From the NCBI RefSeq assembly GCF_000376385.1, contig NZ_AQWN01000001.1, forward strand, positions 166,762 to 230,761: 64,000 nucleotides of DNA, read 5' to 3'. Source of the DNA: Desulfurispora thermophila DSM 16022 (GTDB taxonomy: Bacteria; Bacillota; Desulfotomaculia; Desulfotomaculales; Desulfurisporaceae). Numbering within the stretch: position 1 is the first letter of the stretch; each line of letters opens with the position of its first letter. A program made the position numbers and the translations under genes. Positions 3,657-39,577 of the stretch are shown here, piece by piece. A model generated the notes under the pieces. The model did not search any database. It had not been told where the DNA came from and was given only the letters and a program-made list of their open reading frames with translations.

Positions 3657-4175
3657 TTGCGGGAGGAATTGCTGGCCGAACTGCAGAGCATTCAGGATGC
3701 CATGTGCCGGCTTTCTTTAACGTTGGCTGTGGCCGAGTCTTGTACCGGCGGCCTGCTGGCCGGGCTGATCACCTCACTATCCGGCAGTTCGCAGTACTTC
3801 CGGGGCGGTGTGGTGGCCTATCACAACCAGGTGAAGGCGGATTTGCTGGGCGTGCCGGAACAGGACATAGTGAGCTATGGTGCCGTCAGTCCCCAGGTCG
3901 CTGTGGCCATGGCCGGTGGTGTGCAAAAGCGCCTGGCAGCGACGGTGGGCATCGGCATTACCGGTATTGCCGGGCCGGGCGGGGGCAGCCGGGAAAAGCC
4001 CGTGGGTACAGTGTATATCGCGCTTAAAACGACTCAGGATACGCTTTGTCGCCTCTATAACTTCTCCGGCGACCGGGAGCAGGTGCGCCACCAGGCGGTG
4101 GCGGCTGCGCTGGATATGCTAAAGGCTTACCTGACGGAAAAAGGGCTGCTTTCTGCCGCGCCAGCGCCGGTTTAG
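3657..4175 (+). CDS. pncC: CinA C-terminal domain / nicotinamide-nucleotide amidohydrolase
   Basis: This protein of 172 residues corresponds to the stand-alone C-terminal domain of CinA. The family deamidates nicotinamide mononucleotide to nicotinate mononucleotide in pyridine nucleotide salvage. Diagnostic motifs are AVAESCTGGLLAGLI (about 24-38), the SGSSQYFRGGVVAYHN stretch and GIAGPGGG. The N-terminal MoaB-like half of full-length CinA is absent. The start is TTG at 3657, nine bases after ggaggtg. In many Firmicutes cinA directly precedes recA; here a repeat element and a DEAD-box helicase gene lie between them. Confidence 0.88.
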   Translation: MREELLAELQSIQDAMCRLSLTLAVAESCTGGLLAGLITSLSGSSQYFRGGVVAYHNQVKADLLGVPEQDIVSYGAVSPQVAVAMAGGVQKRLAATVGIGITGIAGPGGGSREKPVGTVYIALKTTQDTLCRLYNFSGDREQVRHQAVAAALDMLKAYLTEKGLLSAAPAPV

Positions 4176-4198
4176 CTGGTGCGCCAATCCTGAGTGCG
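4175..4198 (+). repeat. Solo end of the interspersed inverted-repeat element
   Basis: The sequence gctggtgcgccaatcctgag repeats, with few changes, the left end of the full element that begins 45 bases further on (gctggtgtgccaattctgag). It overlaps the last base of the pncC stop codon. It looks like a partial copy or a tandem duplication of the left terminus. Confidence 0.6.
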
Positions 4199-4219
4199 GT
4201 AGACGGGCACGCCGTCAAA

Positions 4220-4428
4220 GCTGGTGTGCCAATTCTGAGCGAGCCCGTCTGGAGTACCGGCTGCAGCACCCGGCGAGGGCGCGGTAGCGGGCCGGGAGGC
4301 GCGGACAGGACGTCCGCGCCAGCCCCTGTTGAGACAGGATGTCGAATCAGGGGCGGCCCGACCCGCCCGCGACGAGCCGCCGGTGCTGCCCGGTACGGAA
4401 TTCGGGCGAGCGAAGGATGCACACCAGC
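4220..4428 (+). repeat. Interspersed inverted-repeat element, copy 1 (MITE-like or structured RNA)
   Basis: This element of 209 bp recurs at 18791-19004 and, inverted, at 39364-39577. Its termini are a perfect 10-bp inverted repeat (gctggtgtgc / gcacaccagc). Inside are a further inverted pair (gtaccgg / ccggtac with gcccg / cgggc), a strong hairpin ggcgcggac-aggac-gtccgcgcc, and a smaller one around gacaggatgtc. No coding frame is conserved. It lies in the gap between pncC and the helicase. The copies share long identical blocks, pointing to recent spread. It could be a non-autonomous transposable element or a repeated structured RNA; no target-site duplication is evident. Confidence 0.75.
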
Positions 4429-18752: not shown

Positions 18753-18790
18753 TTTTGAGCATACCTGGTAATTATTGCTACAGCGTAAAC

Positions 18791-19004
18791 TTGCGGCTGT
18801 GCCTTTCCTGAGCGAGCCCGTCTGGAGTACCGGTTGCAGCACCCGGCGAGGGCGCGGTAGCGGGGCGGGAGGCGCGGACAGGATGTCCGCGCCAGCCCTA
18901 GCTTTCGACAGGATGTTGAATCAGGGGCGACCCGGCCCGCCCGCGATCGAGCCGCTGGTGCTGCCAGGTACGAAATTCGGGCGAGCGAAGGATGCACACC
19001 CGCA
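18791..19004 (+). repeat. Interspersed inverted-repeat element, copy 2
   Basis: This second full copy (214 bp) has the same orientation as copy 1. Termini are ttgcggctgtgc and gcacacccgcaa (12 bp, one mismatch). The core blocks are shared: gagcccgtctggagtaccgg, the ggcgcggac/gtccgcgcc hairpin (here with one changed base, gatgtccgcgcc) and gacaggatgttgaatcaggg. It follows the stop of the SCP2 gene by about 40 bases. Confidence 0.75.
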
Positions 19005-19040
19005 ATTATAAAGTTAAAAATAAGCTGTAGTATTATCTAT

Positions 19041-19080
19041 GCCAGCCGGAAAATCAGGTTATTTTTTGGCTGGCTTTTTT
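19041..19080. terminator. Terminator downstream of repeat copy 2
   Basis: gccagcc/ggctggc with a 20-base loop is followed by six T on the plus strand. It ends the SCP2 transcript; the convergent sfsA may use the same stem. Confidence 0.75.
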
Positions 19081-39363: not shown

Positions 39364-39577
39364 TTGCGGTTGTGTATTCTTCGCTCGCCCGAATTTCGTA
39401 CCGGGCAGCACCGGCGGCTCGGTCGCGGGCGGGCCGGGCCGCCCCTGATTCGACATCCTGTCGAAAGCTAGGGCTGGCGCGGACGTCCTGTCCGCGCCTC
39501 CCGGCCCGCTGCCGCGCCCTCGCCGGGTGCTGCAACCGGTACTCCAGACGGGCTTGCTCAGGAGAAACACACCCGCA
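39364..39577 (-). repeat. Interspersed inverted-repeat element, copy 3 (inverted)
   Basis: This third full copy lies on the minus strand relative to copies 1 and 2. Termini on the plus strand are ttgcggttgtgt and acacacccgca (one mismatch). The core hairpins (ggcgcggac/gtccgcgcc, gacatcctgtcg) are intact. It is about 95% similar by eye to copy 2 in the core. It ends 46 bases before the NIF3-like start, so it supplies most of that gene's 5' region. Confidence 0.75.

What the first reader, a model, noticed from the sequence alone, without database searches (positions are those of the whole stretch)
4220..4428. Family of ~210 bp inverted-repeat elements with covarying ends
Three full copies (4220-4428, 18791-19004, 39364-39577 inverted) share long blocks. 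The terminal repeats differ between copies, yet both ends of one copy change together: gctggtgtgc/gcacaccagc in copy 1, ttgcggctgtgc/gcacacccgcaa in copy 2. That is compensatory change and means the pairing of the ends matters, either as a transposon terminus or as an RNA/DNA stem. The internal hairpin ggcgcggac/gtccgcgcc is nearly invariant. No transposase or coding frame is present.
Basis: partly seen in the sequence, partly recalled or inferred. Interest (0 to 1): 0.75.

Follow-up and report, generated by a model that had tools for sequence, protein, structure and literature searches.

The report
Mobile elements carrying twin CsrA-type hairpins
A short non-coding DNA element scattered over 40 times in this bacterial genome is a mobile relative of a known orphan RNA family (TwoAYGGAY) whose two hairpins look like landing sites for the gene regulator CsrA, and in related species it hops into gene terminators with the help of a known type of transposon.

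Summary
In detail: three ~210-bp copies lie in the window and 43 matches (about 27 near full length) in the 2.82-Mb genome; arms covary. The core of each copy is two adjacent hairpins with loops CA(N)GGAYG, and copy 1 exceeds the Rfam threshold for TwoAYGGAY (RF01731), an orphan RNA predicted in 2015 to bind CsrA. Across the order the stems change but pair (21 of 23 test pairs with two-sided changes, 0/500 shuffles) while the two GGA loops are among the most conserved columns. New here: TwoAYGGAY is mobile. In relatives it is a ~258-265-bp element with ends CAGACTGTNGACAAA beside an intrinsic terminator hairpin that is directly duplicated whole on the other side. IS1182-family insertion sequences in sister species have the same ends and hairpin duplication, so these copies are IS1182-type MITEs. 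The window's copies have another outer frame (TACTACAGCGTAA) with unknown mobiliser. TwoAYGGAY-bearing genomes nearly always encode CsrA (49/51 versus 236/347 in the phylum; p=4e-6), and this genome has fliW-csrA. CsrA binding itself is inferred: no gene-orientation bias, an inconclusive wobble test, and a few csrA-lacking carriers count against it.

The parts
4220..4428 (+). Copy 1, inner 210-bp element (covarying ends gctggtgtgc/gcacaccagc), GGA strand = +
4295..4359 (+). Match to Rfam RF01731 TwoAYGGAY (51 bits, threshold 43; model positions 46-112)
4298..4320 (+). Copy 1 apical hairpin 1, ggcgcggACAGGACGTccgcgcc, GGA loop
4322..4354 (+). Copy 1 apical hairpin 2, gcccctg...gACAGGATGTc...caggggc, GGA loop
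18776..19032 (+). Copy 2, complete 257-bp element with outer inverted repeats, flanked by TTAT on both sides (18772-18775, 19033-19036)
18791..19004 (+).
18776..18788 (+). Left outer inverted repeat TGCTACAGCGTAA (family consensus TACTACAGCGTAA)
19020..19032 (+). Right outer inverted repeat ATAAGCTGTAGTA
18871..18893 (+). Copy 2 apical hairpin 1 (ACAGGATGT loop)
18895..18928 (+). Copy 2 apical hairpin 2 (ACAGGATGT loop)
19041..19080 (+). Terminator-like hairpin with T-run just downstream of copy 2 on the GGA strand
   Evidence: read directly
39364..39577 (-). Copy 3, inner 210-bp element, GGA strand = -; outer repeats decayed
39476..39498 (-). Copy 3 apical hairpin 1 (GGA loop on - strand)
39441..39474 (-). 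Copy 3 apical hairpin 2 (GGA loop on - strand)

Best explanation
These are non-autonomous mobile elements (MITE-like) whose payload is a TwoAYGGAY-type core: a long paired rod ending in two adjacent hairpins with CsrA-type GGA loops. SHOWN: dispersal in many copies; conserved, covarying structure with GGA loops kept; in relatives the element shares termini with IS1182-family insertion sequences and, like them, sits next to an intrinsic-terminator hairpin that is duplicated whole, so the terminator is rebuilt downstream. INFERRED: an IS1182-type transposase moves those copies by recognising the shared ends and cutting at the terminator hairpin. In the window's genome a different outer frame (TACTACAGCGTAA) carries the same core, mobiliser unknown. 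INFERRED: where the GGA strand is transcribed, often within a gene's 3' region ahead of its terminator, the RNA forms paired GGA hairpins that bind a CsrA dimer, acting as a built-in CsrA site or a dispersed CsrA sponge.
For: RF01731 match above threshold, with full-length RF01731 matches elsewhere in this genome. RF01731 in 27/113 genomes of the order, up to at least 22 copies each, and 51/398 of the phylum. Covariation: 25 pairs in this genome and 21/23 pairs across 25 divergent elements, 0/500 shuffles. The most conserved columns include both GGA loops with their closing C and G; 21/25 and 25/27 folded copies show two GGA hairpin loops, none on the reverse strand. Mobility: G010 flank direct-repeat score 16.8 within copies versus 7.3 between copies; whole terminator hairpins duplicated at the ends of 264-266-bp copies. 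IS1182 elements of 1604-1607 bp in G080/G081 with the same ends, and in G080 the same hairpin duplications; IS1182 pieces in G000 with matching ends. Same ends and duplications in other families, G362 and G143. CsrA: own genome has csrA with fliW upstream; CsrA in 49/51 RF01731 carriers versus 236/347 others in the phylum, p=4e-6, and 22/27 versus 40/86 in the order, p=0.002. Published prediction that TwoAYGGAY binds CsrA: PMC4333381.
Against: No orientation preference relative to neighbouring genes, so the GGA strand is antisense to transcription in many copies. An anchored count of apical stems gives 12 G-U versus 13 A-C, no RNA-strand signal, with wobble pairs rare; structure-based counts lean to G-U only weakly. 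csrA was not found in G067 and G289, which carry several copies. The window's own copies show no target duplication (4-bp test p=0.2) and no transposase with their outer ends was found. No IS1182 with matching ends was found in G010 or G007 themselves. Covariation could come from palindrome repair by template switching.
Confidence: 0.6

Rival explanations
1. DNA-level parasite only: a MITE whose palindromes matter as DNA (cruciform or single-stranded hairpins used in transposition or replication); the GGA loops are part of a DNA recognition or loop geometry, and CsrA is irrelevant.
For: No gene-orientation bias; G-U and A-C mismatches equally rare in apical stems, 12 versus 13; both orientations used at terminators (L154); IS1182 relatives recognise DNA hairpins (PMC4923244).
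Against: GGA loops with C-G closure kept in both hairpins across a phylum; carriers strongly enriched for csrA; the IS1182 elements themselves move without this core.
Confidence: 0.27
2. Arms covary only because inverted repeats are kept alike by template-switch repair of quasi-palindromes, with no selection on pairing; the family is neutral debris.
For: Near absence of all mismatch types in stems; ends differ between genomes but match within a copy.
Against: Does not explain conserved unpaired GGA loops, nor internal mismatches kept at fixed places, nor the csrA association.
Confidence: 0.08
3. Independent small-RNA genes: each copy is a stand-alone CsrA-sponge sRNA (RsmY/CsrB-like) with its own promoter that was spread by transposition.
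For: Multi-copy, structured, paired GGA hairpins as in CsrB/RsmY-type RNAs (PMC4333381); in relatives a terminator follows each copy.
Against: No promoter within the rod-like element has been shown, and I did not test for one; the terminators belong to the target site, not to the element.
Confidence: 0.05

Closest known systems
TwoAYGGAY RNA (Rfam RF01731; Weinberg et al. 2010, PMC2864571)
   Same: Two adjacent hairpins with GGA loops; copy 1 passes the family threshold over the core; other copies in the genome match the full model.
   Different: Described as a candidate structured RNA, probably not cis-regulatory; I found no description of it as a mobile repeated element. The window type has longer, different outer arms that the model does not cover.
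CsrB/CsrC/RsmX/Y/Z CsrA-sponge RNAs
   Same: Paired hairpins with GGA in the loop, the arrangement bound by CsrA dimers; Gardner and Eldai (PMC4333381) proposed this for TwoAYGGAY.
   Different: Those are sRNA genes at fixed loci with many GGA sites; here there are two sites per copy, dozens of dispersed copies, and no shown promoter or CsrA binding.
IS1182 family (IS1272/TnSha1; PMC4923244, PMC5678879)
   Same: Relatives of the element share ends with IS1182 elements of sister species and target terminator hairpins.
   Different: IS1272 replaces or deletes part of the target palindrome and makes no target duplication; here the whole hairpin is directly duplicated. The TwoAYGGAY elements carry no transposase.
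ERIC/REP/MITE-type intergenic palindromic repeats
   Same: Short, non-coding, palindromic, dispersed, mostly intergenic.
   Different: Carries a phylum-wide conserved RNA-family core with specific GGA loops, borne by at least two different outer frames.

Membership tests
TwoAYGGAY RNA (RF01731) | Covariance-model score above the curated threshold | tested here: met
   Copy 1 51.0 bits versus 43; many other copies of this genome above threshold, three over the full model at 62-66 bits. Window copies 2 and 3 did not reach the threshold.
TwoAYGGAY RNA (RF01731) | Two adjacent hairpins with A(Y/N)GGAY-type loops | tested here: met
   25 of 27 copies fold with two GGA hairpin loops, 2 with one.
CsrA-binding RNA | GGA in hairpin loop, ACANGGANGU-like, in pairs | tested here: met
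   Columns C-A-(N)-GGA-Y-G in both loops; consensus recalled from memory, pairing of sites from PMC4333381/PMC4383904.
CsrA-binding RNA | Host encodes CsrA | tested here: met
   csrA next to fliW in this genome; 49/51 carriers in the phylum.
CsrA-binding RNA | Measured binding or regulation by CsrA | not testable with these tools
   Needs gel shift or CLIP.
CsrA-binding RNA | Selection on the RNA strand (G-U tolerated over A-C) | tested here: inconclusive
   12 versus 13 in anchored apical stems; 25:13 and 23:7 in structure-based counts.
IS1182-type MITE (relatives G010, G007, G059, G079) | Ends shared with an IS1182-family insertion sequence | tested here: met
   CAGACTGTNGACAAA-type ends of elements and of 1604-1607-bp IS1182 in G080/G081. 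The IS was in sister species, not in the same genome.
IS1182-type MITE (relatives G010, G007, G059, G079) | Same target and target duplication as the IS | tested here: met
   Whole terminator hairpin duplicated for both. In G079 most copies have two different hairpins.
IS1182-type MITE (window copies) | IS1182 ends and hairpin duplication | tested here: not met
   Outer ends are TACTACAGCGTAA where present; no direct repeat signal.
MITE in general (window copies) | Terminal inverted repeats plus target-site duplication, no transposase | tested here: inconclusive
   Outer inverted repeats at 32 sites versus 3 for the control; TTAT/TTAT at copy 2, but p=0.2 over 7 elements.

The most novel reading that the evidence does not exclude
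Transposons are spreading a CsrA-binding RNA module: by inserting at terminators and rebuilding them, they add twin CsrA sites to the 3' ends of many messages at little cost, giving a distributed CsrA sponge (or a CsrA regulon in 3' UTRs) that only pays in csrA-bearing hosts. This would be a mobile element that wires or buffers a global post-transcriptional regulator.
Probability: 0.33. Interest if true: 0.9.

Novelty: new variant of a known kind. Interest (0 to 1): 0.72.

Why it matters
An orphan RNA family known since 2010 turns out to be, at least in large part, a mobile repeat, which changes how its many genomic copies should be read. If the CsrA prediction holds, a transposon would be dispersing binding sites for a global regulator into the 3' ends of messages, outside Gammaproteobacteria where CsrA-sponge RNAs are known. 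It also documents IS1182-type insertion with direct duplication of a whole terminator, a target rule that spares the host gene.

Tried and rejected
A genome contigs pattern scan gave two unnamed MAG contigs only; one of them (4782 bp) has the same length as G083:C167. IS1182-like transposases of G010 and G007 have different ends, so they are not the partners. An IS with TACTACAGCGTAA ends was not found in this genome. A 4-bp YTAR-like target duplication for the window's frame looked promising by eye but was not significant. A first impression of a strand-specific G-U excess did not survive an anchored count in the apical hairpins and is reported as inconclusive. Orientation bias toward sense insertion was tested and not found (gene calls there are simple ORF picks). 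Rhodo-rpoB and mir-185 Rfam matches are below threshold and on the other strand. No paper linking CsrA to MITEs was found in the held library.

Full report
WHAT IS THERE. The three copies read as described. In the genome (G000, 2.82 Mb, 19 contigs) copy 1 finds 43 matches, some 27 near full length at 84-94% identity. The copies fold into one long imperfect rod ending in two adjacent hairpins; copy 1 has z-scores of -10.6 on the GGA strand and -8.7 on the other. On 27 aligned copies (A1), a structure computed without G-U pairs has 98% of cells paired and 25 of 66 pairs with two-sided changes (shuffles 7.2 +- 1.5; slid partners 0-6). The covarying ends are therefore real and part of a covarying whole.

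WHAT THE CORE IS. Rfam gives one above-threshold hit besides tRNAs: RF01731 TwoAYGGAY over 4295-4359 at 51.0 bits (threshold 43), model positions 46-112. Both hairpins carry the loop ACAGGAYGU. TwoAYGGAY was listed as a probable structured RNA of unknown role (PMC2864571) and later predicted to bind CsrA because both loops match the CsrA motif (PMC4333381). The genome also holds full-length RF01731 matches (C2:261351, C8:74902, C5:203477); these lie beside or inside arms of the 210-bp type.

RELATIVES. RF01731 occurs in 27 of 113 genomes of the order, often in many copies (scoring stopped at 22 per genome, so counts are lower bounds), and in 51 of 398 genomes drawn from the phylum. I read about 80 copies from the order and 40 from the rest of the phylum. 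Arms and stems differ almost entirely between genomes, yet pair. On 25 divergent elements (A2; 59% mean identity) 21 of 23 pairs show two-sided changes, 120 such cells against 28.8 +- 4.7 in shuffles. The most conserved columns include C-A-(N)-G-G-A-Y-G in both loops. Folding each copy gives two GGA hairpin loops in 21/25 (A2) and 25/27 (A1), and none on the reverse strand.

MOBILITY. In G010 the element is mostly 264-266 bp with ends CAGACTGTAGACAAA and TTTGTCGACACTCTG. Each such copy starts directly after a terminator-like hairpin, and the same hairpin follows its other end, often with a T-run. The flanks match each other as direct repeats (mean score 16.8 against 7.3 between different copies; n=21), with repeats of the full hairpin such as AAGCTGCCGCATTACGGCAG. 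The hairpins differ from copy to copy, so this is a target-site duplication covering the whole hairpin. G007, G059, G079, and from other families G362 and G143, show the same kind of ends, and some copies the same duplication. Searching with the IS1182 transposase of the own genome found 1604-1607-bp IS1182 elements in G080 and G081, which belong to the same genus as G010 and G079; their ends are CAGAGTGTCGACAAA/TTTGTCTTCAGTCTG and CAGACTGTCGACAAA/TTTGTCTACAGTCTG, and each complete G080 copy shown is flanked by a directly duplicated hairpin. I conclude that the TwoAYGGAY copies with these ends are IS1182-type MITEs. IS1182 relatives (IS1272, TnSha1) are known to target hairpins and terminators, but without target duplication (PMC4923244; PMC5678879).

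THE WINDOW'S OWN TYPE. Its copies lack IS1182 ends and show no direct-repeat signal. Many carry another outer inverted repeat, TACTACAGCGTAA (32 sites against 3 for the reversed control). Copy 2 is complete from 18776 to 19032, flanked by TTAT on both sides, but over seven elements a 4-bp duplication is not significant (p=0.2). Short core-less forms of 61-109 bp exist. So the same core rides in at least two outer frames, and what moves the window's frame is unknown. This genome does hold IS1182 pieces with CAACCTGTAGACAAA/CAGAGTGTTGACAAA ends.

CSRA. The genome encodes a canonical CsrA with a FliW-like protein just upstream (FliW named from its sequence, not searched). In the order 22 of 27 carriers have csrA against 40 of 86 non-carriers (p=0.0017; within families p=0.037, with some family labels assigned by list order). 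In the phylum sample 49 of 51 carriers have csrA against 236 of 347 (p=4e-6; p=3e-5 without the own order). Exceptions with several copies are G067 and G289. This is an association; genome size, motility or shared descent could contribute.

AGAINST AN RNA ROLE. Neighbouring-gene orientation shows no bias: own copies ++8, --10, +-4, -+5; G010 ++8, --6, +-7, -+0 (simple ORF picks). In G010 none lies between divergent genes, as expected for terminator targeting. Anchored counts in apical stems give 12 G-U and 13 A-C in 114 distinct hairpins of 37 genomes, so no strand signal; structure-based counts lean to G-U (25:13 and 23:7) but not significantly by columns. The test is inconclusive, and a DNA-level role for the hairpins stays open.

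VERDICT. The family is a mobile, non-autonomous element with a TwoAYGGAY core (well supported in relatives; by homology and dispersal for the window copies). CsrA binding is the likeliest function of the core, supported by loop conservation and csrA association, but not shown.

Noticed in passing
G079: L121 (left flank) and L124 (right flank): The terminator hairpin left of one element equals the one right of another, as expected from recombination between copies or from a misassembly at the repeats; most G079 copies have different hairpins on the two sides.
   Followed up: partly
G000 C8:74771-75174 (L243/L259): A 404-bp composite: a canonical TwoAYGGAY copy nested inside the outer arms of the window-type element, which itself keeps TACTACAGCGTAA ends.
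   Followed up: partly
L139, L143, L147, L158 (G010): Internal-deletion derivatives that keep IS1182-type ends and hairpin flanks but lack the GGA core; each deletion differs, suggesting loss after insertion.
   Followed up: no
L023 and L011 downstream flanks (G000): A smaller palindrome like GGGCGAGCGnnGTGCATGCTCGCCC, related to the right end of the element, occurs beside copies.
   Followed up: no
window 4174-4220: Just upstream of copy 1 lies a partial duplicate of its left end (gctggtgcgccaatcctgag).
   Followed up: no
L298 (G129:C5:10427-10886): An element near a contig end flanked by an 80-bp direct repeat; a tandem duplication or a circular-contig overlap.
   Followed up: no
G000 C3:1-834 and C6:1-834 (L159, L168): Two contigs start inside the same IS1182 transposase gene and share the hairpin after its end, so the assembly breaks at this insertion sequence.
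   Followed up: partly
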